Shown in pieces: positions 42,305-55,926 of a stretch of 64,000 bases of DNA. The notes beneath the pieces are model-generated. The model made no database searches and was not told the DNA's origin. It saw only the letters and a list, made by a program, of their open reading frames with translations. The stretch comes from Geomonas oryzisoli (GTDB lineage: Bacteria > Desulfobacterota > Desulfuromonadia > Geobacterales > Geobacteraceae). Every line of letters begins with the position of its first letter. The first letter of the stretch is position 1. The position numbers were made by a program, and so were the translations under genes. The stretch is taken from assembly GCF_018986915.1 (NCBI RefSeq), contig NZ_CP076723.1, positions 3,996,228-4,060,227 of the forward strand, read 5' to 3'.

Positions 42305-44215
42305 ATGTCGGCCCCTCAACGTTTTAAGGTCATTAACATGAGCCAAATATTTTTACGCCGGTCCCTACAGGCCGGCCTGATCCTGCTCGCCTTTCTTTGC
42401 ATGGGCTTCACTTGGGGCGGCAAGGATAAGTGCACCGAAGCGCGGGAAGCCGTTGACAAAATAGCACCCGAAACCCCGGCAGCCGAGCGGGCCGAAACTG
42501 AAAAGAAGGTCCACGCGCTTTGCCGCGACGGAGCAGCGGCACTGTACCTCAAGGCGGTTTCCCTTGAGGCAGACGGAAAAAGTGACGAGGCAATGGCTGC
42601 CTACCGCGACGCTTTTGCCAAGGATCGTCAACTCCTCCAGGCCCAGGGGCGCCTCGGGCTCTTGCTGCTGGCCAAAGGGAACCGCGAAGAGGCATCGGTA
42701 CCCCTTTTCGAGGCGTCCAGGCAGTCCGGCGACCCGCGCTACACCCGCGCCCTTGCCGACATATTCCTGGAAGGGAAGCTGTACGCGCTGGCCCTGAGCC
42801 AGTACCTCGCGGCCCAGCCTGCCTTTGCCGACGACGTCAACCTCTTCCTCGGGCTCGCCCGCAGCTACACCGGCCTGGGCGATCAGCAGCACGCGCTGGC
42901 ATCGCTACAGGAGGCCCTGCGCCTGCAACCAACCAACGTAACGGTCCAACTCGAATTGGCCGCCCTGTACCAAGAGACTCGCCATTACGACCAGGCGGCT
43001 GCTCACCTGCGCGAGGCGATCCGCGAGGATCCGGGCAACGCCAATGCTCATTTCAGGCTGGCACAGCTTCTGGAGGTGACGGGCAAGCGGGAAGAGGCCG
43101 AGCAGGAATACGCGCGAGCCGGGGTGCAGCGCACCGTCACGGTAGCCGACCACCTCAAGCGGGCCGCGAGATACGAGGGTGCCGGCGACCTCGCGCTGGC
43201 CGCCGCCGAGTACACGGCGCTGCTGGTTAAGAATCCGGACACGGCGGGGGTACGGGAGAAGCTGGGTGACGCCCAAATGGCGGCCGGTCGGGATGCCGAA
43301 GCGATCTCGGCCTACGAAGACGCCCTGCGGCGGAAGGAGGATTCCACCCGGCTGCGCTACCACCTGGGCACTCTCTACGAGCGCAAGGGGGATCTCGATG
43401 AGGCAGTGGCCAACTTCGCAGCCGCGCTGCGGCTCGACCAGGGCAATAGCGAGGCCCGCAGGCGGCTGGCAGACATCCGCACTCTGCGCGGCGAGTTGGA
43501 TGAAGCCATCGCTTCCTACCGCGAACTCGTGTCCCGGCAGACGGACAACCCCATCAACTACCTGAAGCTCGCCCGACTGCTGGAGAAACGACACGCGTAC
43601 AAGGAGGCGGCGGCCGCCTATGACAAGGCGCTCTCCCTCGACTCGTCCAACAGCGAGGCCCATCGCAGCGTCGCGTTCCTGCTACTGCGCATGAAGCAGC
43701 CCGAACCGGCGGAGCACCACCTGCGCGACGCCCTGAAGCTCGACCCGGCTAATGCACAGGCACGCGACGCGCTGATCTCGCTCCTCGTGAAACAGAAGCG
43801 TTACGATGACGTCGTCGTTCTGCTGGAAGAGGATGCGCAGCTCAACCCGCAAAGCGCCGACAGCCAGTACCGCCTGGGGGTCGTCTATGCTTTCAAGCGG
43901 CAAGACGACAAGGCTCTGCAGCAGTTCGACGCCGCGCTGAAGATAAAACCCGATCACGCCCGGGCACTGAACGCGCGAGGGAAGATCTTCCTCAAGCAGG
44001 GCGACCAGGAAAAGGCGAAGGAGGCGTTCGCTGCCGCCAGAGCGGCCGACCCGGACCTACTGGAGCCGGTCGAACTGTGGAGCAAGCTGAACGTTACCAG
44101 CAAAAAGCACATCGAGAAGAAGAAATCACATGAAGGGAAGCAGAGGGCGAGATCCAGGAAGAAGAGCGAACCCAAAAAGATCAGCTCGAAGAAAAGATCG
44201 AAGTCCAAACGGTGA
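42305..44215 (+). CDS. Exported TPR-repeat protein with Lys-rich tail
   Basis: Protein of 636 residues with an N-terminal hydrophobic signal-like helix (about 17-36). At least a dozen tetratricopeptide repeats fill residues about 75-590; examples are ALASLQEALRLQPTNVTVQ and AAAAYDKALSLDSSNSEAHR. The C-terminal 45 residues are strongly basic, KKHIEKKKSHEGKQRARSRK in part. AAGGAGG at 42292 supports ATG 42305; ATG 42338 is an alternative that better fits a signal peptide. It is likely co-transcribed with pal (22-bp gap) and probably acts as an envelope scaffold. The partner is unknown. A strong terminator follows. Confidence 0.85.
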   Translation: MSAPQRFKVINMSQIFLRRSLQAGLILLAFLCMGFTWGGKDKCTEAREAVDKIAPETPAAERAETEKKVHALCRDGAAALYLKAVSLEADGKSDEAMAAYRDAFAKDRQLLQAQGRLGLLLLAKGNREEASVPLFEASRQSGDPRYTRALADIFLEGKLYALALSQYLAAQPAFADDVNLFLGLARSYTGLGDQQHALASLQEALRLQPTNVTVQLELAALYQETRHYDQAAAHLREAIREDPGNANAHFRLAQLLEVTGKREEAEQEYARAGVQRTVTVADHLKRAARYEGAGDLALAAAEYTALLVKNPDTAGVREKLGDAQMAAGRDAEAISAYEDALRRKEDSTRLRYHLGTLYERKGDLDEAVANFAAALRLDQGNSEARRRLADIRTLRGELDEAIASYRELVSRQTDNPINYLKLARLLEKRHAYKEAAAAYDKALSLDSSNSEAHRSVAFLLLRMKQPEPAEHHLRDALKLDPANAQARDALISLLVKQKRYDDVVVLLEEDAQLNPQSADSQYRLGVVYAFKRQDDKALQQFDAALKIKPDHARALNARGKIFLKQGDQEKAKEAFAAARAADPDLLEPVELWSKLNVTSKKHIEKKKSHEGKQRARSRKKSEPKKISSKKRSKSKR

Positions 44216-44242
44216 CGTGCCGAAGCGGCAGGAACCAATGAG

Positions 44243-44270
44243 GGAGGCGCCGGGCCGGCGCCTCCTTTTT
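44243..44270. terminator. Intrinsic terminator between the TPR gene and nhaA
   Basis: GGAGGCGCC-ggGcc-GGCGCCTCC followed by TTTTT on the plus strand. It closes the pal-TPR transcript and lies just before the nhaA 3' end on the other strand. Confidence 0.9.
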
Positions 44271-44277
44271 CTCACCT

Positions 44278-45441
44278 TCATCTCACCCTGGCCCCGGTCC
44301 CGTTCCTCAAAATCAGGTAGCCGGTCCCGCCTGCCAGCACCGAAGCCACCAGGATGCTAAGTTTGGAGCCGATCAGGAGTTGATCGTCTTCGAAAGCGAG
44401 CGTGGTTATGAATATGGACATGGTAAAGCCGATGCCACCAAGCATCCCCGCCCCCACCACATGCCTCCAGCGTACGCCGGCCGGCAGCGCGGACAACTTC
44501 CATCTGACCGCCAGGTAGCTGAACAGCCATATCCCTAAAGGCTTCCCGATCAGCAACCCCATCATGATGCCGAGGCTGTTGGCCGTCACCACCGAATCCA
44601 GCCAGCGCTCCGGGAGCCTAAGCCCTGTATTGGCCAAAGCAAACAGCGGCATGATGACGAAGCCCACCGGCTTGTGCAGGAAGTGCTGCAGCCTGTATGA
44701 CGGAGATGCCCCGTCCCCGGAGCGGAACGGAACCGCGAAGGCGAGGAGCACCCCCGCGATGGTGGCATGAACACCGGATTGCAGCATCAGGTACCACATG
44801 AGCAGCCCAACCGGCAAAAAGATGGAAAGCCTGCTCAATCCAAAACGGTTCAGGGCCAGTAACAGCGCGAAAACCGCCAAGGCCGCCACCAGGTGCGGTA
44901 TCGACAACCCCGCTGCGTAGAACAAAGCGATCACCACTATGGCGCCGAGATCATCGATGATGGCCAGGGCCACCAGGAAGACCTTCAGCGTCGAGGGGAT
45001 CCTCTTTTTCAGAAAGGACAGGATCCCTATGGCGAAGGCGATGTCGGTCGCGGTAGGGATACCGGCCCCCTTTGCAGTCGCGGTGCCGTGATTGAGGAGG
45101 AAGTGGATCACAGCGGGGACCGCCATGCCCCCAACTGCCGCCACTATGGGAAGCAAGGCCTTTTTGTGGTCGGTAAGCTCCCCGACGTACAGTTCCCGTT
45201 CTATCTCGAGCCCGATCAAAAGGAAGAAGACGGCCATCAGCCCATCGTTGATCCAGTGCTGCAAGGTATGCCCAAGGAATTCGGCATGCCAAAGACGGCC
45301 ATAGGCGTCGGCCAAGGGAGAGTTCGCCAAAGTGATGGCGACAACCGTGGCCAGGAACAGGACCACCCCCGAGGACATCTCGCTCTCCAGGAACTCGGCG
45401 AACAGCCCGGCAAGCTTTCTTTTGCCTCTTTCAATGGTCAT
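44278..45441 (-). CDS. nhaA: Na+/H+ antiporter NhaA
   Basis: Inner-membrane sodium/proton antiporter of 387 residues, the usual NhaA length, with about 12 helices. The paired aspartates needed for transport are in LAIIDDLGAIVVIALF. The unwound-helix motif TATDIAFAIGIL and GLMAVFFLLIGLEIERELYVGEL at the N-terminal half are NhaA hallmarks. AGGGGA precedes the ATG. It starts 31 bp after ablB and is the last gene of the eight-gene run that also makes trehalose and acetyl-beta-lysine. That context supports a role in salt and pH homeostasis. Confidence 0.94.
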   Translation of the reverse strand: MTIERGKRKLAGLFAEFLESEMSSGVVLFLATVVAITLANSPLADAYGRLWHAEFLGHTLQHWINDGLMAVFFLLIGLEIERELYVGELTDHKKALLPIVAAVGGMAVPAVIHFLLNHGTATAKGAGIPTATDIAFAIGILSFLKKRIPSTLKVFLVALAIIDDLGAIVVIALFYAAGLSIPHLVAALAVFALLLALNRFGLSRLSIFLPVGLLMWYLMLQSGVHATIAGVLLAFAVPFRSGDGASPSYRLQHFLHKPVGFVIMPLFALANTGLRLPERWLDSVVTANSLGIMMGLLIGKPLGIWLFSYLAVRWKLSALPAGVRWRHVVGAGMLGGIGFTMSIFITTLAFEDDQLLIGSKLSILVASVLAGGTGYLILRNGTGARVR

Positions 45442-45472
45442 GTTCGTCCCCTACGGGAGGTTGATTGTGCCA

Positions 45473-46354
45473 TCAGGCCGGGCTCGACGGAAAAACCGAA
45501 CTCCAGGCGAGGGCCGGATCGTCGCCCAGTGCCTTGTACCAGACATTGACGCTCTCAAGGGTACCGTAAATATTGGTGCTGTTGGTGAGGGTACCGCCGT
45601 AACAGTACCCCCCCCTGGCAAAGGTGATGTTGATGCCGGGGGCGTAGGCGCGCACCGCCGACCACAGCAGCCTGACCCCCAGCGGACTCAAGGCCTGGGC
45701 CATGCCCTGCAGCAGCAGCAAGGCATGCCCCCGGCCCCGGTGCTGCGGGTGAACCGCAAAGTGGGCCAGTTCGCCGCTGCCGGAGGCGGCGTCGAGGTGT
45801 GCCGCGCACATGGCGACGGGGGCCTCTGCGACCCACACCCCCAGAAAAAGATCCCCCCTGTTCAGGGCGGCCTCCAAAAAACGGGGGTCGTGGACGGCGG
45901 CAGGCTTGGCCACCCCCACCTCGCCGTAAAGGGCGGCCACCCGGTCAACGTCCGCCGCTTGGGCCAGCCGCAGCGTCCCCCCTTCGGCCAGCGTCACTGC
46001 AGGGGCCGGGGGCTGCAACTCGGTGGTAGCCAGGACCGCGTTGCGCAGCATCGGCGCCCGCTCCAGCATCTGCTCCTTGACGAAGAATCTGGTCATGAAA
46101 CAGCCGGTGTCGCCCTCGCCGTAAAAGTGCGGGATCGCCGCCTCCAGCTGGTAACCGGCTGCGACGAAATGGCGGGCGTGGGCCGCCGCAATCCTGGCGC
46201 ATACCTTGGTGTACCCTCGGGAAATGGCCACCCGCTCCAGGTCGGCGACGATGCCCGGTGCGTCCCCCGGATCGAGGTGCACAAGGACCGCCTGTCCGTC
46301 ACGGCGGTCATGGCGCAAAAGCGATTTCCCCATCTTTTCGATCTCGTCTGTCAT
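45473..46354 (-). CDS. ablB: Beta-lysine N-acetyltransferase (AblB)
   Basis: GNAT-family enzyme of 293 residues that acetylates beta-lysine to N-epsilon-acetyl-beta-lysine, a compatible solute of methanogens and some bacteria. The acetyl-CoA site is in VHPQHRGRGHALLLLQ (about residues 210-225), and the AblB-like N-terminal region has HFYGEGDTGCFMTRFF. The C-terminus INITFARGGYCYGGTLTNSTNI fits the family. GGGAGA precedes the ATG at 46354; a longer frame overlapping otsB is not supported. AblA (lysine 2,3-aminomutase), which makes the substrate, is not in the window. It follows otsB by 17 bp and precedes nhaA by 31 bp. Confidence 0.87.
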   Translation of the reverse strand: MTDEIEKMGKSLLRHDRRDGQAVLVHLDPGDAPGIVADLERVAISRGYTKVCARIAAAHARHFVAAGYQLEAAIPHFYGEGDTGCFMTRFFVKEQMLERAPMLRNAVLATTELQPPAPAVTLAEGGTLRLAQAADVDRVAALYGEVGVAKPAAVHDPRFLEAALNRGDLFLGVWVAEAPVAMCAAHLDAASGSGELAHFAVHPQHRGRGHALLLLQGMAQALSPLGVRLLWSAVRAYAPGINITFARGGYCYGGTLTNSTNIYGTLESVNVWYKALGDDPALAWSSVFPSSPA

Positions 46355-46371
46355 GCTTTTCTCCCGTCCAC

Positions 46372-47159
46372 TCAGCCGTCCGCGCATTCGGGCCCGCTTT
46401 CGCAGCACGACTCCAGGACACCTACGATGGAATTGAGCAGTCCCAGTATCTCGGACTGCTGGTTGAGGTAATAGGTCGCGGCCGACTGGTCGTTCCTGCC
46501 GACATGCACACCGAAGATGTCGCCCCGCGCCATCCTGAAGACATCCTCGTCGGTTTCGTCGTCGCCGAAGTAGATTGCCCTGGAGCAGCCCAGTTGCTCC
46601 AGGGCAGCCGCCAGCGCCTCGCCTTTGCCCAAGGCCTCCGCGGGAACGACGTTCACCACGTATTTCCCGCCAATGGTGCGTGGTGCCGGATCGAGGTCCT
46701 CGATGGCCGCATTGATCATCATCAATGCGCGCTGCGGGTCCTCGCTCTTGCGGTAATGCAGGCTCAGCGACTCCCCCTTGAACTCGATCTCCACCCCCGG
46801 CTCGTAGAAAAGCGCCGTGTGCAGGCGGTCCCGCCACTTGAGGCAAAGCTGGACCAGCTCCCAGCGCCGCCCGCTATTTTGTCCCGGCCATTCCGCCCCA
46901 TGGTTTCCGATCACGAGGTGCGGCTGGAATCCGAGGATGCCGATGGCATCCTGGCGCGATCTACCGGTGATGATCGCTACCTTGGCCAATCCCATCAGGC
47001 GCTGCAGGACCCCGCGCACCGGCTTGGCAACCCTCGCTTGGCCGTAGTCCGCGACGATGGGGGCGAGGGTGCCGTCCAGGTCGAAGGCGAACAGGGTGTC
47101 CGCCGCCACGTGGTGGGTGAAAGCTGCGAGTTCTTCAAACTGGAAGAGGTAACTGGGCA

Positions 47160-47160
<1 letters not shown>
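46372..47160 (-). CDS. otsB: Trehalose-6-phosphate phosphatase OtsB
   Basis: HAD-superfamily phosphatase of 262 residues that releases trehalose from trehalose-6-phosphate. HAD motif I FDLDGTLAP (about residue 27) holds the nucleophile Asp and acid/base Asp; motif II ITGRSR and motif III/IV IYFGDDETDED are present, with IGNHGAEW as the trehalose-phosphatase signature. The start codon shares its A with the stop of otsA, indicating tight coupling. It lies between otsA and ablB, so solute synthesis genes are contiguous. If the upstream synthase makes a different sugar phosphate, this would be the matching phosphatase. Confidence 0.92.
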
Positions 47161-49418
<2,258 letters not shown>

Positions 49419-49442
49419 GCGAGCCTCGCTGCGGTCGGCGCG

Positions 49443-50210
49443 CTAAGCCGCCTGAGCCGATCCCGCGTTGAAATAGGGGAGCATGAGATCCTCCATGCTG
49501 TAGAGCCCGGCGCCCCTTTCATGCAGATGCTTCGCCGCAAAGAGCACGCCGTTGCCGAAGGCCTCGCGGGTGATGGACTCGTGCTTCAGGCGCACCGTCT
49601 GGAAGGGGAAGCCGAAGAGGATCTCGTGCACCCCGATGATGCCGCCGGCACGCACGGTCTTGATCGCTTCCTCTTCGAGCCCCAGGGACGAGGCGATCTT
49701 TTTGGCCGTCCCGGAGACTTCGGGCTTGGCCTTGAAATGTTCCTCCACGACCTCGATGTCCGTGTAGGGCGCGATATTCTTGAGGATCTTCGCCGCGATG
49801 ATGAGAAAATTGATGCCGATGGTGATGTTGGGAGACCATAGCACCCGAGTTTTTTGCGCCAGGTGTTTCAGATACGCCACCGTCTGCTCCGAATACGAGG
49901 AGATGGCACTCACCACGGCGACGTTGCGGTCACGGGCCGCCTCGCCGTAGTATCTCACCCCATGCTCGGAGGAAAAGTCGATGATGACATCCACCGGGAA
50001 CCGCTCCAGCAGTTCCGCCCCGGAAAATTCATCCGCGGAATAGATGTATCCCGGCTCCTCCGAATCGATCCCCAGGAACTCCGGTACCGATCTATGTTCG
50101 AGGTTGTGCGACTTGCGCAGCACCCACTGAAGGTTGGTTTCCTTGCTCTGCAGCAGCACCGATGCCACCGCCTTGCCTGTCTTGCCGAATCCCATCAATC
50201 CTACTTTCAT
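49443..50210 (-). CDS. DapB-like reductase (dihydrodipicolinate reductase paralogue)
   Basis: NAD(P)-dependent reductase of 255 residues. The N-terminal nucleotide motif is GFGKTGKAVASVL. The C-terminal half resembles DapB but lacks its hallmark: where DapB has HHxxKxDAPSGTA this protein reads EEHFKAKPEVSGTAKKI, losing the HH pair and DAP segment while keeping SGTA. Dihydrodipicolinate may therefore not be its substrate. ATG 50210 has GAGG upstream, inside the DUF389 stop; GTG 50216 is less likely. It is 2 nt after the DUF389 gene and 24 bp before otsA. A link to diamino-acid metabolism, perhaps of beta-lysine, is speculative. Confidence 0.8.
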   Translation of the reverse strand: MKVGLMGFGKTGKAVASVLLQSKETNLQWVLRKSHNLEHRSVPEFLGIDSEEPGYIYSADEFSGAELLERFPVDVIIDFSSEHGVRYYGEAARDRNVAVVSAISSYSEQTVAYLKHLAQKTRVLWSPNITIGINFLIIAAKILKNIAPYTDIEVVEEHFKAKPEVSGTAKKIASSLGLEEEAIKTVRAGGIIGVHEILFGFPFQTVRLKHESITREAFGNGVLFAAKHLHERGAGLYSMEDLMLPYFNAGSAQAA

Positions 50211-50212
50211 GT

Positions 50213-51802
50213 TCACCTCACATTGTCATACCGCACGACGCGCAGCGTCACCGCGCCTCCCCGACCGCGGGATGTGACCGTGGTGACAGCCTGTGCCGGA
50301 ACGTCCAGTTGTTGCGCGAGATAGCGCCCAAGGAAGCGCAGCCTGCCGCCGCTCTCCTTCGGCCCGGCCACCTCGAAACGGAACGCCGATGGCCCTTCGG
50401 GCAGGTGGCGCAGCATCTCCAGTTTGCTTTTGCTTTCGGGGGCAAGGGATCCGTCCCCGGCGAAAACGATGGGCGGCAGCATCGGAGTCACGCGGATTTC
50501 CACCCGCACCGGGACCCCCAGTGCCTGCTGCAGCTGCCGGCTCAACAGCAGGCGCTCATCGTCGCGTACCTCGTAATCCCTGCCCAGCGTGGCGCTCACC
50601 AGCAGAGGCCCTCCCTCTCCGCCGAACGCCACCGTGGTGTGCGAAACCTCGAAGGGGACGAGGGCACCGGTAAGTTCCTGCTCGACCCTCGCCACGAGCG
50701 GCCCCATCTTCGCAGCGAGCTCAGCCGGGCTCTCCTTCGCAGGCTGTGCCCCAACGCCCCCCCTTTTTGCCGTTACATCCCCGAGCTGGCTTTCCGAGGC
50801 AACGATCACCTGCTCAAGCTCCAGCCGCACCGGGCGCCCAAGCCCCTGGGCCAGTTCCTGCTCGATCGCTTGTTGCGCCGGTTTGGGAACAAAGCGCACC
50901 GTGTTCACCGATGCCATCACCAGCACCGCCTTGCCCTCCTGCCGAAACCGGTACCCGGTCAGGCGCGACGCGAGCTCACGGTCCAGGCGGCTTTTGAGCA
51001 CCCGCCCGATGCGTTTTTCGTTCTTGATCCTCGTCACATCGCTGCTCAGCGTGTAGACGAGCGGCACGGAAATAAGGGTCAAAACCGTGGTGATAACGGC
51101 CAGCCTGGTCCGGTGCGAGTGCTGCGATGCCTCCACGTGGCTGGTCCTGAATCCCATGATGAAAAAGACGATGTCCGAGCTCAGGATGATGGCAACGAAG
51201 TTGGTGAAAAAGAGCAGGAATCCGCCCAGGGCCAGCATCGGCTGCCAGGTCCCCAGGCCATAACCGGCCACGCTCAGGGGGGGGATGACGGCGGTCGCGA
51301 CTGCCACCCCGGTCGACGTGATCAGGTAGTTGCGCTTGGTGCACAGGGCCACCGCACCGGCGACCCCGGACAGCGCCGCAATGAACAGGTCCAGGATGTT
51401 AGGCCGCACCCGGGACAGGATCTCCGCCGTGGGCTCCTTTAACGGAGACACGAGCGTTATGAGTGCGCTGACCGCCACGGTGAGCGCGATGCTCGTGCCC
51501 AGGGTCCGGAATGTCCGCCGCACCAGGGCAAGGTCGCCGATGGTGAAGGAAAGACTCGCCGAGATGATCGGTCCCATGAGCGGAGAGATCAGCATGGCCC
51601 CGATTACCACGGCTACACTGTTCAGAAGCAGTCCCAGCAGGGCGATCACCGCGGCGAGGATGAGCATCACGTAATAGACCCAGGAGCCGTCCACCGAAGC
51701 GGCGACCTCCCTGATCACCTCGCGGTGCTGCACCATGTCAGCCTTCATGGCCAGATAGGCTTTCATCCTGCCCCGGTAGAATGGAGTGCCGGTTCCTGCC
51801 AT
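50213..51802 (-). CDS. DUF389 (TIGR00341-type) membrane protein
   Basis: Inner-membrane protein of 529 residues with about six hydrophobic helices in residues 30-270. The family signature is LLNSVAVVIGAMLISPLMGPII near the first helices, with a second conserved run YLITSTGVAVATAVIPPLSVAGYGL. The C-terminal 250 residues are a soluble alpha/beta region, rich in RVEI and VRLELEQV strands, that most DUF389 proteins lack or vary. The start is ATG 51802 with GGAAGGAT. It overlaps nothing, being 11 bp after the glucosidase gene. The function of DUF389 is unknown; its place among ion and solute genes suggests transport or sensing in salt stress. Confidence 0.82.
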   Translation of the reverse strand: MAGTGTPFYRGRMKAYLAMKADMVQHREVIREVAASVDGSWVYYVMLILAAVIALLGLLLNSVAVVIGAMLISPLMGPIISASLSFTIGDLALVRRTFRTLGTSIALTVAVSALITLVSPLKEPTAEILSRVRPNILDLFIAALSGVAGAVALCTKRNYLITSTGVAVATAVIPPLSVAGYGLGTWQPMLALGGFLLFFTNFVAIILSSDIVFFIMGFRTSHVEASQHSHRTRLAVITTVLTLISVPLVYTLSSDVTRIKNEKRIGRVLKSRLDRELASRLTGYRFRQEGKAVLVMASVNTVRFVPKPAQQAIEQELAQGLGRPVRLELEQVIVASESQLGDVTAKRGGVGAQPAKESPAELAAKMGPLVARVEQELTGALVPFEVSHTTVAFGGEGGPLLVSATLGRDYEVRDDERLLLSRQLQQALGVPVRVEIRVTPMLPPIVFAGDGSLAPESKSKLEMLRHLPEGPSAFRFEVAGPKESGGRLRFLGRYLAQQLDVPAQAVTTVTSRGRGGAVTLRVVRYDNVR

Positions 51803-51813
51803 CTCTATCCTTC

Positions 51814-53604
51814 CTAAAACGCGGTGTCCCACCTTTTCGAGAGGCGGATGGCCGCGTTGATCAGCCCGACCATGCTGTAGGTCTGCACGAAGTTGCCCCA
51901 CTGCTCCCCGGTCGCCACGTCGACGTGCTCCGCCATCAGGCCGTGCCGGTTGTGGCGCGCCAGGAGATTTTCAAAGAGCCGGCGCGCTTCCTCGGAGCGC
52001 CCCAAGGCCACCAGGGCGTAGATGTACCAGTAGGTGCAGACGATGAACGCGTTTTTGGGCGTGCCAAAGTCGTCGTCCTCGACGTAGCGGAAGATGTAGT
52101 CGCCGCGGCGCAGATCGCGCTCGATGGCGGCGACGGTCGAGGCGAAGCGCGGGTCGTCGGCAGCAAGGAAGCCTACGTCGTGCATGAGCAGGAGACTTGC
52201 GTCGAGGGTATCCCCTTCGAATGCCGCCGTGAAGCTCTTCTTCTCCTCACTCCAGCCACGCCGGCACACCGTCTCGTGGATGCGCTGCGCCTGGGCCTCC
52301 CAGTATGCGGCCCGTTCCCTGAGCCCAAGTCGGGTTGCTATCCTCCCCAGGCGGTCGCAGGCGGCCCAGCACATGATGCTGGAGAAGGTGTGAACCCTGC
52401 GGCTTCCCCTGAGCTCCCAAAGCCCGGCGTCCGGCTGGTCGTGCATCTGGATCGCCATCTCACCCAGCGGCTCGAGACGGTGGAACAGGGGCATATCGCC
52501 GCGCTGCATGAGGCGGTGATCGAAAAACACGTGGGTAACCGCCAGAACCGCAGAACCGTACACGTCGTGCTGCACCTGCAGGCAGGCCTGGTTGCCGACC
52601 CGCACCGGTCCCATGCCGCGGTAGCCGGGCAGCGACGGCATCTCCTTCTCTTCCAGGTTGCTGCTGCCGTCGATGCCGTACACCGGTTGCAGATAGCCGC
52701 CTTCGCTGCCGGCAACCACGTTGACCAGGTAGCGCAGGTAGCGCTCCATGGTCTTGGTCGCGCCGAGGCGGTTCAGCGCGTTGACAACGAAATAGGAGTC
52801 GCGCAGCCAGCAGTAGCGGTAATCCCAGTTCCTTCCGGAATCCGGGGCCTCGGGGATCGAGGTGGTGAGAGCGGCGGCGATGGCGCCGGTGTCCTCGAAG
52901 GCGTTCAGCTTGAGTGTGATGGCCGCCCTGATCACCTCGTCCTGCCACTCGTACGGGATGCCCAGATCCCGCACCCATTCCTGCCAGTAGGCGATAGTGT
53001 CGTTCCTGAAGCGGTGCGCGAGCTCGGAGACGTTTTCGTGCACGGTTTCGTCCGGGCCGAACACGAGGTTCACCTCGTCATCAAGCACGAACGGGAGTTC
53101 CTGCAGGATGGCGGTGATCGAGGCGTCGGTGGAGAGGCGCAGCACCATGTACGGCGAGACGTAGCGGATGTGGTGGCTGCCGTGGGTAAATTCGCCGCGT
53201 TCCGCGCCATAGTTGCGTGCCGGCCGCACCCTGATGACGACCCTCGGCGTCCCCTGCACCCGGCGCATCTGCCGGACCAGCATGATGGGGGTGAACATCC
53301 TGCCGTACTGCCGGAAGCGGGGGGCGAAGTCGCTGATCTCCACCACGCCGCCCCGGGAGTCGGTCATCCTGGTGACGAGAACCGCCGAGTTGGTGAGGTA
53401 CTCCTGTTCGCTCGCCACCTGGTCCATGAGTTCTACGGAGCAGTAGCCAAGCCCCTCTCCCGGTTCGTGCTCCTGGAGCAGGGAGCAGAATACGGGGTCG
53501 CCGTCGAAGCGGGGTAGGCAGTACCATACGATCTCCGCCTGATTGTCGATCAGCGCGCCGATCTGGCAGTTGCCGATCAATGCGAGGTCAAGGGAATGCT
53601 TCAT
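51814..53604 (-). CDS. Glycoside hydrolase family 15 protein (glucoamylase/trehalase type)
   Basis: Cytoplasmic GH15 enzyme of 596 residues, with no signal peptide. The N-terminal beta-sandwich starts LALIGNCQIGALIDNQAEIVW. The (alpha/alpha)6 catalytic domain has RNWDYRYCWLRDSYF, the general-acid Glu in AGLWELRG and a second candidate acid Glu in LMAEHVDVATGEQWGN. Related bacterial GH15 enzymes, such as mycobacterial-type trehalases, hydrolyse trehalose. Encoded 36 bp after marR and in the same run as otsAB, it most likely removes trehalose when stress ends. A glucoamylase activity cannot be excluded. Confidence 0.88.
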   Translation of the reverse strand: MKHSLDLALIGNCQIGALIDNQAEIVWYCLPRFDGDPVFCSLLQEHEPGEGLGYCSVELMDQVASEQEYLTNSAVLVTRMTDSRGGVVEISDFAPRFRQYGRMFTPIMLVRQMRRVQGTPRVVIRVRPARNYGAERGEFTHGSHHIRYVSPYMVLRLSTDASITAILQELPFVLDDEVNLVFGPDETVHENVSELAHRFRNDTIAYWQEWVRDLGIPYEWQDEVIRAAITLKLNAFEDTGAIAAALTTSIPEAPDSGRNWDYRYCWLRDSYFVVNALNRLGATKTMERYLRYLVNVVAGSEGGYLQPVYGIDGSSNLEEKEMPSLPGYRGMGPVRVGNQACLQVQHDVYGSAVLAVTHVFFDHRLMQRGDMPLFHRLEPLGEMAIQMHDQPDAGLWELRGSRRVHTFSSIMCWAACDRLGRIATRLGLRERAAYWEAQAQRIHETVCRRGWSEEKKSFTAAFEGDTLDASLLLMHDVGFLAADDPRFASTVAAIERDLRRGDYIFRYVEDDDFGTPKNAFIVCTYWYIYALVALGRSEEARRLFENLLARHNRHGLMAEHVDVATGEQWGNFVQTYSMVGLINAAIRLSKRWDTAF

Positions 53605-53640
53605 GACTGGCTCCTCCCTTTCAGCCGCGGCCCGCGGAGG

Positions 53641-54102
53641 TCAGCCGCGCAGCGGCTGCGGCATCAGGTGTTCGGCTCCCAGTATCCTCACCATGTGCCG
53701 CATCCCTTCCAGGACGCTGTCGAACTCCTGCTGCGTGAGCGTGGACAGGCCGTTCACCAGCATGACCTGCGCGACCTCGGGAGCCTTGGCCACAAGCACC
53801 CTGCCCGCGCCTGTCAACTCCAGGTCAACCGCGCGCCGATCCTGCTGCGACCTGGTGCGGGTCACCAGCCCCTTGCCCTCCAACCGGTCCAGAATCCCCA
53901 CCACGGTGGCAGGGCGCAGGTACATCTGCCGGGCTAAATCTGAGACGCGAAGAGGTGCCTGCCGGTCGAGGATCTTCAAAGCCCACAGCTGTGGTCCGGT
54001 TAGCTCGGTCTCTCTCTCGGCGCTGCGCGAATACTCACTCACCGCCTGAAAGATCCTCCTCAGATTGTCTATGATTTCTGGTGTCTGCTCACTACGTCCC
54101 AT
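53641..54102 (-). CDS. MarR-family transcriptional regulator
   Basis: Winged-helix regulator of 153 residues. The DNA-binding region is PLRVSDLARQMYLRPATVVGILDRLEGKGLVTRTRSQQDRRAVDLELT, read in parts; the DxRA loop sits in SQQDRRAVDLELT. GGAGCG precedes ATG 54102. It is the first gene of the eight-gene minus-strand run leading to nhaA and is divergent from the ClC gene. The shared 265-bp region contains two face-to-face promoters, so this regulator probably represses itself and its neighbours. The ligand or signal is unknown. Confidence 0.9.
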   Translation of the reverse strand: MGRSEQTPEIIDNLRRIFQAVSEYSRSAERETELTGPQLWALKILDRQAPLRVSDLARQMYLRPATVVGILDRLEGKGLVTRTRSQQDRRAVDLELTGAGRVLVAKAPEVAQVMLVNGLSTLTQQEFDSVLEGMRHMVRILGAEHLMPQPLRG

Positions 54103-54119
54103 GTTGCGCTCCAAATACC

Positions 54120-54148
54120 TTGACAACAAGATTAGCAAGGCGAATAAT
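54120..54148 (+). promoter_or_regulatory. Plus-strand sigma-70 promoter toward the ClC gene
   Basis: TTGACA (54120-54125), 17-bp spacer, AATAAT (54143-54148): five of six -10 bases and all -35 bases match. Predicted start near 54155, leaving a long leader of about 213 nt before the GTG at 54368. Confidence 0.6.
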
Positions 54149-54159
54149 TAGCCCCACAA

Positions 54160-54188
54160 ACTATATCAACTATCAGCAGGTCCGTCAA
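54160..54188 (-). promoter_or_regulatory. Minus-strand sigma-70 promoter toward marR
   Basis: On the minus strand TTGACG (54183-54188), 17-bp spacer, TATAGT (54160-54165). Predicted start near 54153, 51 nt before marR. It faces the plus-strand promoter, so the two transcripts overlap. The direct repeat AACTAT-atc-AACTAT (54159-54173) covers its -10 box and may be a regulator site. Confidence 0.6.
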
Positions 54189-54367
54189 GGTAGTCCCGGA
54201 ACACCTTCCCCTCAGGCTACTCCCTGCAACCATGAGTGCACGTCTATCATCGCAATCAAGAAGGCCTCTCAACGCTAAGTTGACGATGCAGCCGTAAAAG
54301 CTGGCACTGCCATCGCGCACTCTGTCGTGATAGCTCACGCTGCATCGAGATAGAAAGGATACAACCA

Positions 54368-55732
54368 GTGAACCGTAAAATAGTCGAACAGGTGACGCTT
54401 TTGGCAAGCGTGATCAAGTGGGCAAGCTACGCCTCCGCCGTTGGGGTGCTGGTCGGCGGCGGCACCACCGCCTTTTTGAAGGCGCTCGCATGGAGTACAT
54501 CCCAGTATTCAAAGATGCCCGACTACTACCTGCTGCTCCCAGTCACACTCGTCGCAAGCGCCCTCTTGGTCAGGTGGTTCGCCCCCGACGCAGCCGGCCA
54601 TGGCACGGAAAAGGTGATCGAGGCGGTGCACCAGAGAATGGGGAGAATCCCGGTAATGGTGGTCCCGGTGAAACTGGCGGCGACGGTCATCACCCTGGCT
54701 GGTGGCGGGTCGGCGGGAAAAGAGGGCCCCTGCGCCCAGATCGGCGCCGGACTCGCCTCCTCGTTCGCGTCACTGCTGCGACTCAACGACGTCGACCGGC
54801 GCAAACTGGTCATATGCGGCATCAGTGCGGGGTTCGCTACCGTCTTCGGTACCCCGATCGCGGGGGCTCTTTTCGGCGTGGAGGTGCTCGTACTCGGGCA
54901 GGTGTTCTACGACGTGCTTTTTCCTTCATTCGTGGCGGGCATCATCGGCTTCCACGTGGCAGGGAAGCTCGGGGCGAGCTACCCGCATCCTGCGGCCGAA
55001 ATCATCCCCGCCGTCACCGGCTGGAGTTTCACCGAGATGATCCTGCTCGGCATCTGGTGCGGTGTCGCCGCTTTGCTCTTCATCGAGTTGATGCAACTGG
55101 GACACCGGCTGTTCGCACGGCTTTCCTGGCATCCGGTGGTGAAGGCACTGTTGGGAGGGGTGCTCCTGGTCCTGATCGGCAGGTTCGTATCGCTGCGCTA
55201 TCTGGGGCTTGGCCTGGACAGCATTGATGCCGCGCTCAACGGCGCGGTGCTTCCCGCCGGGGCCACTTTCATGAAGATGATTGCGACCTCGATCACCCTG
55301 GGCAGCGGCGGCAGCGGCGGCGTGGTCACCCCGATTTTCTTCATAGGAACCGCAGCGGGGAACCTCTTCGCCTCGCTGTTCCACGAACCCCTGGTCGCCA
55401 CCTTCTCGGCCATCGGCATGGTTGCCCTTTTGGCCGGTGCAGCCAACACCCCCATAGCCGCCTCGGTCATGGCCATGGAGCTCTTCGGGGCCGGCATCGC
55501 CCCGCACGCCGGCGTCGCCTGCATGGTGAGCTTTCTCATCGTGGGATACCGCAGCATCTACCCGAGCCAGATCCTTGGCATCCAGAAGAGTTCGTCGCTG
55601 AAGGTGGAAACCGGGCGGCCGCTCGGACAGTTGAATCCGGAGAAACGGCAGGACCACCTGGCAATTTCTCTACCGTCATTCGTGGTGAAGGGGGCCAAGG
55701 TCCTCGGTAAAAACCGTAAGAGGTATAAATGA
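54368..55732 (+). CDS. ClC-family chloride channel/antiporter
   Basis: Inner-membrane anion transporter of 454 residues with about 10-12 hydrophobic helices. The ClC selectivity segment reads GGGSAGKEGPCAQIGAGLAS; its GKEGP has the glutamate at the gating position, suggesting an exchanger. A second motif is GSGGSGGVVTPIFFIGTAAG, where GxFxP is replaced by GVVTP. No CBS domains are present. The start is GTG 54368 with AAAGGAT upstream. It is divergent from marR and the salt-stress operon and convergent with a 38-residue gene. A role in chloride or acid tolerance is inferred from this context. Confidence 0.9.
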   Translation: MNRKIVEQVTLLASVIKWASYASAVGVLVGGGTTAFLKALAWSTSQYSKMPDYYLLLPVTLVASALLVRWFAPDAAGHGTEKVIEAVHQRMGRIPVMVVPVKLAATVITLAGGGSAGKEGPCAQIGAGLASSFASLLRLNDVDRRKLVICGISAGFATVFGTPIAGALFGVEVLVLGQVFYDVLFPSFVAGIIGFHVAGKLGASYPHPAAEIIPAVTGWSFTEMILLGIWCGVAALLFIELMQLGHRLFARLSWHPVVKALLGGVLLVLIGRFVSLRYLGLGLDSIDAALNGAVLPAGATFMKMIATSITLGSGGSGGVVTPIFFIGTAAGNLFASLFHEPLVATFSAIGMVALLAGAANTPIAASVMAMELFGAGIAPHAGVACMVSFLIVGYRSIYPSQILGIQKSSSLKVETGRPLGQLNPEKRQDHLAISLPSFVVKGAKVLGKNRKRYK

Positions 55733-55738
55733 AATCAG

Positions 55739-55855
55739 TCATTTTTTGGACACCTTCACTATTACCACGATCAGCAGGACCACCAGGAGTACCCCGGCAA
55801 TCCCCCAGATCATCATCGACCCCATCATCCAACCCATCATATCCTGATGCATCAT
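55739..55855 (-). CDS. Unannotated-size Met-rich single-pass membrane peptide (38 aa)
   Basis: A tiny gene with a strong GGGAGG ribosome site 8 nt before ATG. The 38-residue product starts MMHQDMMGWMMGSMM, so 8 of its first 15 residues are Met, followed by a hydrophobic helix (about 15-33, IWGIAGVLLVVLLIVVIV) and a KVSKK tail. Met/His clusters near a membrane helix are typical of copper- or silver-handling peptides; this is inference. It ends 6 bp from the convergent ClC gene and starts 71 bp after the DUF4396 gene, closing the four-gene minus-strand run. Confidence 0.7.
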   Translation of the reverse strand: MMHQDMMGWMMGSMMIWGIAGVLLVVLLIVVIVKVSKK

Positions 55856-55926
55856 GGCTCATCCTCCCGACCGGCCGCTTCGCTTTCCCCTAGCGGCCGC
55901 TACTGCTCCTGAGACGCACCGCCCCC

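What the first reader, a model, noticed from the sequence alone, without database searches (positions are those of the whole stretch)
44278..54102. Eight-gene minus-strand run combining two compatible solutes with ion transport
marR, GH15 glucosidase/trehalase, DUF389, DapB-like, otsA, otsB, ablB and nhaA lie head to tail with gaps of 36, 11, 2, 24, -1, 17 and 31 bp, and face a ClC chloride transporter gene. Trehalose synthesis and degradation, acetyl-beta-lysine formation, a sodium/proton antiporter and an anion transporter in one MarR-linked unit form an unusually complete salt, osmotic and pH module. DUF389 and the DapB-like protein have no known role in it, so they may be new components.
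Basis: partly seen in the sequence, partly recalled or inferred. Interest (0 to 1): 0.72.

Follow-up and report, generated by a model that had tools for sequence, protein, structure and literature searches.

The report
Salt-stress operon with sensor-fused trehalose enzyme
A bacterium close to Geomonas carries a conserved gene run that joins sugar-based osmotic protection to salt and proton pumps under one likely repressor; its sugar-making enzyme has a predicted built-in membrane sensor, and one partner belongs to an apparently undescribed, widely scattered enzyme family often found beside ion pumps.

Summary
In detail: eight minus-strand genes with the stated gaps, facing a ClC gene. The full order is kept in 5 of 19 congeners (own included); its core (MarR, OtsA, OtsB, often DUF389, NhaA, GH15, ClC) recurs in 13 loci of other genera of the order. 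A tandem palindrome (TAATTAGC-N3-GCTAATTA, copies 16 bp apart) lies over the predicted divergent promoters and also precedes clc in one genome where clc is unlinked, which supports a MarR-controlled osmotic/salt regulon. The second compatible solute is not supported: AblB is below its cut-off and the genome has no AblA over cut-off; true ablAB pairs occur in 3 of 58 relatives, elsewhere. OtsA has a 265-residue N-terminus modelled as a histidine-kinase-type membrane sensor. The DapB-like protein belongs to a separate clade spread over several phyla, which coexists with canonical DapB and in 8 of 38 sampled loci lies within two genes of an inorganic-ion transporter; the commonest Flavobacterium neighbours are not such genes. 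DUF389 and DapB-like are credible recurrent components; their chemistry is unknown. Co-transcription, salt response and function are untested.

The parts
53641..54102 (-). marR, MarR-family repressor, first gene of the run
   Evidence: PF01047 63.9 bits; ATG at 54102
51814..53604 (-). GH15 glycoside hydrolase with trehalase-like N-domain (trehalase or other glucosidase)
   Evidence: PF00723 193.3 bits, TREH_N 27.3 bits; TreH1 model below cut-off
50213..51802 (-). DUF389 polytopic membrane protein
   Evidence: PF04087 130.2 bits, TIGR00341 102.1 over cut-off 94.75 (longer ORF); 53-56% identical partners in 6 sensor-OtsA loci of other genera
49443..50210 (-). DapB-like reductase of a distinct paralogous clade
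   Evidence: DapB_N/DapB_C; TIGR00036 110.8 below cut-off 122; one side of a branch against 19 canonical DapBs, support 100/99
47160..49418 (-). otsA: trehalose-6-phosphate synthase with predicted N-terminal membrane sensor (residues 1-265) and GT20 domain (270-734)
   Evidence: PF00982 390.6 bits; model of the N-part closest to a WalK model, Foldseek E 1.3e-8
46372..47160 (-). otsB, trehalose-6-phosphate phosphatase
   Evidence: TIGR00685 105.2 over cut-off 68.05
45473..46354 (-). AblB-like GNAT acetyltransferase, substrate unknown
   Evidence: TIGR03827 189.7 below cut-off 205.1; no ablA over cut-off in the genome
44278..45441 (-). nhaA, sodium/proton antiporter
   Evidence: TIGR00773 408.1 over cut-off 254
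54368..55732 (+). ClC-family anion transporter, divergent from marR
   Evidence: PF00654 246.4 bits
54145..54163 (.). proposed MarR operator, copy 1 (3 mismatches to TAATTAGC-N3-GCTAATTA)
   Evidence: overlaps both predicted -10 boxes
54129..54147 (.). proposed MarR operator, copy 2, offset 16 bp (4 mismatches)
54160..54188 (-). sigma-70-like promoter of the marR run, TTGACG-17-TATAGT
54120..54148 (+). sigma-70-like promoter towards ClC, TTGACA-17-AATAAT
44243..44265 (.). hairpin just after nhaA, between it and the converging TPR gene; T run on the plus strand only
   Evidence: z -5.25 (minus) and -4.77 (plus)

Best explanation
The run is a MarR-repressed osmotic/salt-homeostasis operon of the Geobacter order. 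Shown by sequence: conserved gene order, a tandem palindromic operator (16-bp offset) over predicted divergent promoters, and the same operator before clc when clc is unlinked. Inferred: stress (ligand unknown) releases MarR and raises two outputs together. One is trehalose, made by OtsA/OtsB, with GH15 turning over the pool. The other is ion and proton exchange through NhaA and ClC, with DUF389 as a further membrane transporter or channel. OtsA is predicted to be held in the membrane by a WalK/CitA-type extracytoplasmic sensor, so an outside cue would set synthase activity directly, without a kinase relay. The DapB-like protein is an NAD(P)H-dependent reductase kept for ion or pH stress rather than for ordinary lysine synthesis; its substrate is unknown. 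The AblB-like GNAT acetylates an unknown amine.
For: Of 18 sensor-OtsA loci: otsB in 18, marR in 15 on the same strand (one of them only 35% identical) plus 1 opposite, DUF389 in 11, nhaA in 11, GH15 in 10, ClC in 8 (six NhaA calls confirmed by Pfam). Operator within 4 mismatches in 15 of 22 marR upstream regions, 0 of 100 shuffles as good in each of the 15. Of 14 sites with up to 2 mismatches in 14 genomes, 10 lie at the marR promoter of such a run, 2 beside clc elsewhere and 2 at unrelated genes. Sensor fold. Neighbours at +-1 and +-2 of DapB-like genes: DUF389 4, ClC 3, Na_H_Exchanger 3 and CitMHS 3 of 134 proteins are among the leaders of the Pfam tally (control); proteins with 6 or more hydrophobic segments 24 of 134 against 8 of 150 in the control, one-sided Fisher p 7e-4. 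17 of 19 DapB-like genomes searched also hold canonical DapB over cut-off. Of 5 DapB-like genomes among 395, 4 are among the 29 with sensor-OtsA, hypergeometric p 1.1e-4.
Against: No expression, binding or biochemical data. At up to 3 mismatches the operator is not enriched genome-wide (59 sites against 73 for the reversed pattern over 14 genomes), and it was derived from the regions in which it was counted; 7 of 22 upstream regions lack it. The window's own copies are degenerate (3 and 4 mismatches). DapB-like occurs in only 5 of 18 sensor-OtsA loci. In 39 Flavobacterium-group loci the commonest +-2 neighbours are a DUF1810 gene (33), a SdhB-like (25) and SdhA-like (20) gene and an ABC ATPase (22), none an obvious ion transporter. 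Two loci put Asp/lysine-pathway genes near DapB-like (L072, L071). ClC starts about 200 bp from its predicted promoter. The scan also finds terminator-like sites inside the run, 12 over the region against 7.0 (sd 3.3) expected. The DUF389 model is poor (pLDDT 64.5), with no Foldseek hit at E <= 0.001. Three of the four genomes in the co-occurrence overlap are one family.
Confidence: 0.7

Rival explanations
1. The run is a loose stress island: genes useful in salt or desiccation were gathered by transfer, each largely independent, and MarR controls only its own gene and perhaps clc.
For: Patchy: 5 of 19 congeners have it and 1 (G018, 85% complete) a shorter form. Composition varies between loci, and the ablB-nhaA end is only 58-62% identical in three congeners whose otsB is 83-87%, so parts are exchanged.
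Against: Gaps of -1 to 36 bp, no internal minus-strand promoter-like site in the consensus scan, and the same order in 5 congeners.
Confidence: 0.2
2. Two-solute operon: trehalose plus N-epsilon-acetyl-beta-lysine, with DapB-like feeding lysine.
For: AblB-like GNAT in the run; a KamA-family protein exists elsewhere in the genome; the DapB-like catalytic His and Lys are kept.
Against: No ablA over cut-off in any of the 5 genomes with the run; the KamA protein has counterparts in all 58 relatives; true ablAB pairs sit in 3 other genomes. Canonical DapB coexists.
Confidence: 0.07
3. The DapB-like protein is a second, ordinary 4-hydroxy-tetrahydrodipicolinate reductase that merely boosts lysine or diaminopimelate supply.
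For: Fold and the His/Lys/SGT residues kept. In L072 an exchanger gene and then an aspartokinase (AA_kinase plus ACT) follow it; in L071 an aspartokinase-like gene and a DapB homologue lie at +6 and +7. The odds were raised slightly after finding these.
Against: Separate clade on a long branch (3.8 changes per column, with long-branch warnings among the canonical rows); the second active-site His is an invariant Phe; across phyla it is far more conserved than canonical DapB of the same eight genomes (59-72% against 25-51%).
Confidence: 0.18

Closest known systems
E. coli-type otsAB trehalose pathway (families PF00982/TIGR02400, TIGR00685)
   Same: Both enzymes present, adjacent, with full-length domains.
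   Different: OtsA carries a predicted N-terminal membrane sensor; a MarR gene is linked, where E. coli uses sigma-S (recalled).
Geobacter sulfurreducens GSU2337-GSU2336 (otsA, otsB) and mrpABCDEFG GSU2344-2338, PMC2700814 (passages read)
   Same: OtsA described as containing a synthase domain, with OtsB; a sodium/proton antiporter complex has adjoining locus numbers.
   Different: The passages read treat them separately and name no sensor, MarR, DUF389 or DapB-like protein.
Arthrobacter OtsA as osmotic stress sensor, PMC5685639 (abstract and outline seen)
   Same: OtsA linked to osmotic sensing.
   Different: There through self-assembly promoted by trehalose-6-phosphate; here through a predicted membrane sensor.
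WalK / CitA extracytoplasmic sensor domains of histidine kinases
   Same: Predicted helix-sensor-helix membrane layout and fold.
   Different: Output is a glycosyltransferase, not a kinase.
DapB, 4-hydroxy-tetrahydrodipicolinate reductase (TIGR00036)
   Same: Fold, catalytic His and Lys, SGT motif.
   Different: Below the model cut-off, separate clade, His-to-Phe change, mostly different neighbours.
ablAB acetyl-beta-lysine operon
   Same: A full-length match to the AblB model.
   Different: Below cut-off and no ablA over cut-off.

Membership tests
OtsA (trehalose-6-phosphate synthase) | full GT20 domain over the Pfam cut-off | tested here: met
   PF00982 390.6 bits, cut-off 32.5, residues 270-734
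OtsA (trehalose-6-phosphate synthase) | stricter equivalog model TIGR02400 over cut-off | tested here: not met
   415.7 against 564.85; works like an OtsA by domain and by its OtsB partner
OtsA (trehalose-6-phosphate synthase) | makes trehalose-6-phosphate | not testable with these tools
   no assay possible
OtsB | TIGR00685 over cut-off | tested here: met
   105.2 against 68.05
NhaA | TIGR00773 over cut-off | tested here: met
   408.1 against 254
AblB beta-lysine acetyltransferase | TIGR03827 over cut-off | tested here: not met
   189.7 against 205.1
AblAB acetyl-beta-lysine pathway | lysine 2,3-aminomutase AblA over cut-off in the genome | tested here: not met
   best 420 bits against 525.4; a protein of that sort is present in all 58 relatives
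DapB (lysine pathway) | TIGR00036 over cut-off | tested here: not met
   110.8 against 122
DapB (lysine pathway) | the genome's only DapB | tested here: not met
   canonical DapB at C1:4489977-4490564; over cut-off in 17 of 19 DapB-like genomes
DapB (lysine pathway) | catalytic His and Lys | tested here: met
   H158 and K162 invariant in 31 rows; catalytic role recalled from E. coli DapB
Archaeal trehalase TreH1 (GH15) | NF041084 over cut-off | tested here: not met
   318.7 against 820; GH15 itself met
DUF389 / TIGR00341 | model over cut-off | tested here: met
   102.1 against 94.75
MarR regulator | MarR wHTH domain | tested here: met
   PF01047 63.9 bits
MarR regulator | binds a palindromic operator at its own promoter | tested here: inconclusive
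   operator found by sequence only; binding not tested
Histidine-kinase-type sensor module | TM-extracytoplasmic PAS/CACHE fold-TM | tested here: inconclusive
   model pLDDT 71.7, Foldseek to a WalK model E 1.3e-8; no Pfam match; predicted, not solved

The most novel reading that the evidence does not exclude
Two new things meet here. First, a trehalose synthase under direct transmembrane control by a kinase-type sensor, a one-protein route from outside osmolarity to solute synthesis. Second, a conserved, horizontally spread DapB-derived enzyme family whose job is ion or pH homeostasis, making or sensing an unknown NAD(P)H-linked metabolite together with DUF389 and Na+/H+ or Cl- transporters.
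Probability: 0.35. Interest if true: 0.76.

Novelty: new variant of a known kind. Interest (0 to 1): 0.56.

Why it matters
If the sensor domain gates OtsA, trehalose synthesis can answer outside conditions without a phosphorelay, which is testable by domain deletion. The DapB-like clade gives a concrete handle on DUF389, a membrane family without known function: both recur beside sodium, proton and chloride transporters. The operator lets the regulon be predicted in related bacteria.

Tried and rejected
Acetyl-beta-lysine synthesis was tested and rejected as unsupported. Rfam found nothing at gathering threshold in 43900-55900. DUF389: no PDB relative by sequence (E up to 1) and no Foldseek hit at E <= 0.001 on a weak model; the zinc-transporter hits among the 50 rows shown have TM-scores by query of at most 0.17 and are not evidence. 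GH15: no PDB relative by sequence at E <= 0.001. Surveys for DapB-like found few: 5 of 395 and 1 of 369 genomes. The operator pattern at 3 mismatches is not enriched over the reversed pattern.

Literature searches, held library only: DUF389 (8 papers, none with it in title or abstract, listing only); trehalose/ablB/Geobacter/otsA (6 papers, of which PMC2700814 was then read in passages); DapB paralogue terms (1 paper, listing only, on Clostridium heat resistance by title); trehalose-6-phosphate synthase with HAMP domain (1 fungal paper, listing only); Geomonas with trehalose (on another order by title); MarR, trehalose, chloride channel, operon and Geobacter together (none); acetyl-beta-lysine/ablB/trehalose/otsA, any two (477 papers, 15 listed); GSU2337 and similar (both seen in passages); otsA, transmembrane, trehalose-6-phosphate synthase and sensor domain (listing only). 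By these searches I found no description of the sensor-OtsA or of the DapB-like clade in print; most subscription papers are not covered.

Errors of mine: the first query file held DUF389 and the OtsA C-part out of frame; numbers for those two are void, and repeats them in frame (the DUF389 count stayed 11 of 18). In one search I labelled an L138 protein as a Na/Pi transporter; one search shows a biotin carboxylase, and the two Na_Pi_cotrans members are in L055. L109's neighbour, first read as a CPA1 antiporter, has no Pfam match, only a phmmer match to the L072 exchanger (E 1.1e-60). The first ORF picker failed and was replaced; it mis-picks strands in some GC-rich loci such as L059, which lowers neighbour counts there.
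Full report
OBSERVATION. The eight minus-strand genes and the facing ClC gene are present at the stated places with exactly the stated gaps, and the families hold apart from AblB. The genome is a single 4.85-Mb contig.

CONSERVATION. Among 19 congeners searched (own included), 5 carry the sensor-type OtsA at 90% or more (G000, G004, G008, G013, G017), and all 5 keep the order marR-GH15-DUF389-DapB-OtsA-OtsB-AblB-NhaA. G018 (85% complete) has a short form, ClC facing marR-DapB-OtsB-NhaA. Over 58 relatives, 19 match the OtsA N-terminus; G016 is weak (2.8e-4) and was left out, which gives 18 loci. Within about 9 kb (less where a contig ends) these hold: otsB 18, marR 15 on the same strand (one only 35% identical) plus 1 opposite, DUF389 11, nhaA 11, GH15 10, ClC 8 (one a distant ClC of 27% identity in L033), DapB-like 5, AblB-like 5. 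Six of the NhaA calls were confirmed by Pfam. So the core is MarR, sensor-OtsA and OtsB, with a changing set of ion-transport partners. In G. sulfurreducens the published locus numbers put otsA-otsB (GSU2337-2336) directly after mrpABCDEFG (GSU2344-2338) (PMC2700814, passages; PMC3495685, one passage).

OPERATOR. Upstream of the orthologous marR genes lies the palindrome TAATTAGC-N3-GCTAATTA, often with a second, weaker copy offset by 16 bp. The motif was taken from these regions, so counting it there is partly circular: 15 of 22 upstream regions have it within 4 mismatches, with 0 of 100 dinucleotide shuffles as good in each of the 15. In the window the copies are 54145-54163 (3 mismatches) and 54129-54147 (4 mismatches). 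Copy 1 overlaps the -10 boxes of both predicted divergent promoters, and copy 2 the -10 box towards ClC. A less circular test is the scan of 14 genomes. At up to 3 mismatches the pattern is not enriched (59 against 73 for the reversed pattern). Of the 14 sites with up to 2 mismatches, 10 are at the marR promoter of such a run (G018's short form included), 2 are at clc away from the ots genes and 2 are at unrelated genes. The two clc sites are tandem copies: in G027 directly before clc (its otsAB genes are on another contig), and in G036 between an OmpA-family gene plus ClC on one side and marR, an MscS-family channel, two amylase-family genes and a GH57 gene on the other. I read those sugar genes as the maltooligosyl-trehalose route, from recall; Pfam names only the broad families. 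ClC therefore appears to share the operator even when unlinked.

SENSOR-OTSA. The synthase domain is residues 270-734 of 752; the first 265 residues match no Pfam family. The 16-row alignment gave a model with mean pLDDT 71.7: a long helix, a mixed helix-strand domain, a second long helix, then a weak coil. Foldseek puts a WalK model first (E 1.3e-8, TM-score 0.51 by query length), then WalK extracytoplasmic domains and, lower, CitA domains, with TM-scores by target length of about 0.5-0.65 (only 3 matches reach E <= 0.001). The fused form is found in 29 of 395 genomes of the phylum sample (three of the weakest matches cover only the part next to the synthase), so it is not a local oddity.

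DAPB-LIKE. The protein scores 110.8 against the DapB cut-off of 122. Canonical dapB lies elsewhere in the genome. A pattern-led scan of species genomes found 222 relatives; the best 80 were kept, 59-98% identical, from several bacterial phyla and one Bathyarchaeota assembly (single archaeal and metagenome contigs could be mis-binned). A 31-row alignment has 74 invariant columns; the catalytic His and Lys and the SGT motif stay, while the second active-site His is an invariant Phe (roles recalled from E. coli DapB). In a tree with 19 canonical DapBs the 31 form one side of a branch with support 100/99; the tool warns of long branches among canonical rows. Of 19 genomes that carry it, 17 also have canonical DapB over cut-off; the other two show only partial canonical matches, and L072's genome, also asked for, was not held. 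Between phyla it is 59-72% identical to the window protein, where the canonical DapBs of the same eight genomes are 25-51% identical to the window genome's own, some over partial lengths; within the Geobacter group this reverses, 76% against 83% for L044. That fits spread by transfer plus strong constraint.

NEIGHBOURS OF DAPB-LIKE. From the loci held I chose 38 of differing origin, dropping most Flavobacterium and Acinetobacter and near-copies, and scanned the +-1 and +-2 neighbours (134 proteins; 6 over 900 aa left out). The Pfam tally is led by DUF389 (4), Voltage_CLC (3), Na_H_Exchanger (3), AA_kinase (3), CitMHS (3), AAA_19 (3), Trehalose_PPase (3) and a viral-helicase domain (3), with Na_Pi_cotrans, MarR, TrkA_C and others at 2. 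The control, the first 150 of 181 proteins at +-5 to +-8, shows among transporters only MnhG (2) and DUF1646 (1) in its 25 listed families; single hits further down are not shown, and the L047 ClC at +7 is in that set. A second measure, proteins with 6 or more hydrophobic segments, gives 24 of 134 against 8 of 150, one-sided Fisher p 7e-4. Locus by locus, an inorganic-ion transporter within two genes is supported in 8 of 38: L036 (ClC, NhaA), L043 (NhaD and two Na/H exchangers), L044 (ClC), L047 (Mrp-type antiporter subunit), L048 (Na/Ca exchanger), L055 (ClC, two Na/Pi transporters), L072 (Na/H exchanger), L093 (sodium-pumping decarboxylase beta subunit). It is 9 with L109, whose neighbour only resembles the L072 exchanger, and 11 if DUF389 alone counts (window, L095). 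Overlapping or touching pairs include DUF389-DapB (L095), DapB-exchanger (L072) and DapB-Mrp (L047). Against this: among 39 Flavobacterium-group loci the commonest +-2 neighbours are a DUF1810 gene, SdhA- and SdhB-like genes and an ABC ATPase, and Acinetobacter shows RluA-like, GNAT and drug/metabolite-exporter-like neighbours (read by eye). L072 also has an aspartokinase at +2, and L071 an aspartokinase-like gene and a DapB homologue at +6 and +7, so a lysine-side role cannot be excluded. Genomes with DapB-like in the 395-genome sample are 5, of which 4 also have sensor-OtsA (29 of 395), hypergeometric p 1.1e-4; three of the four are one family. In one of these (L140) GH15-OtsA-OtsB lies about 4.5 kb from the DapB-like gene.

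WHAT FAILS. Acetyl-beta-lysine: TIGR03827 matches over its cut-off in 3 of 58 relatives (G037, G043, G056), each directly beside a 769-773-bit AblA. The five genomes with the run have 167-190-bit AblB-like proteins and no AblA over cut-off, only a KamA protein of 404-425 bits (own genome: 343 aa, beside genes that read as pyrD and pyrK) of a sort that all 58 relatives hold. The AblB-like protein should be called a GNAT acetyltransferase of unknown substrate. GH15 may be a trehalase or another glucosidase. DUF389 remains unsolved.

MECHANISM AND STATUS. Shown: gene order, operator sequence, domain make-up, no AblA over cut-off, separateness of the DapB-like clade. Inferred: MarR repression and its release, direct control of OtsA by the sensor, reductase activity, the role of DUF389. 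Nothing here shows expression or chemistry. The system as a whole is a variant of known osmotic-stress operons; the sensor fusion and the DapB-like clade are the parts that may be new.

Noticed in passing
L033 2749-8608, L034 4373-6060, L035 3927-5614: One or two further marR paralogues (55-58% identical) lie upstream of the orthologous marR in three congeners; of these four extra copies only one (L033 2749) has the operator.
   Followed up: partly
L033, L034, L035 (ablB-nhaA end): ablB and nhaA are only 58-62% identical to the window's while otsB is 83-87%, so the 3' end of the run seems exchanged in these species.
   Followed up: no
window 54368-55732: By eye, the ClC protein lacks the usual GSGIP motif (reads GHGTE) and the internal proton glutamate, while the gating glutamate is kept; motif roles are recalled, so the transport mode may be unusual.
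   Followed up: no
L043 3467-15092: DapB-like sits in a cluster of a 1115-aa amylase-family protein that reads as trehalose synthase, NhaD, an SPFH protein, a Kef-type and a second Na/H exchanger, and a GGDEF-like protein.
   Followed up: partly
L041 8767-9369, L193 6465-7037: An OmpA-family gene lies between ClC and marR in two loci (Pfam) and genes of like size in others, apparently under the same operator.
   Followed up: partly
L121 1807-2838: A short 343-aa KamA-family radical SAM protein in the window's genome, with a counterpart in all 58 relatives; it is below cut-off for AblA and EpmB alike.
   Followed up: partly
L141 (G447:C40:188941-189657): One genome holds a second, about 50% identical copy of the DapB-like gene.
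   Followed up: no
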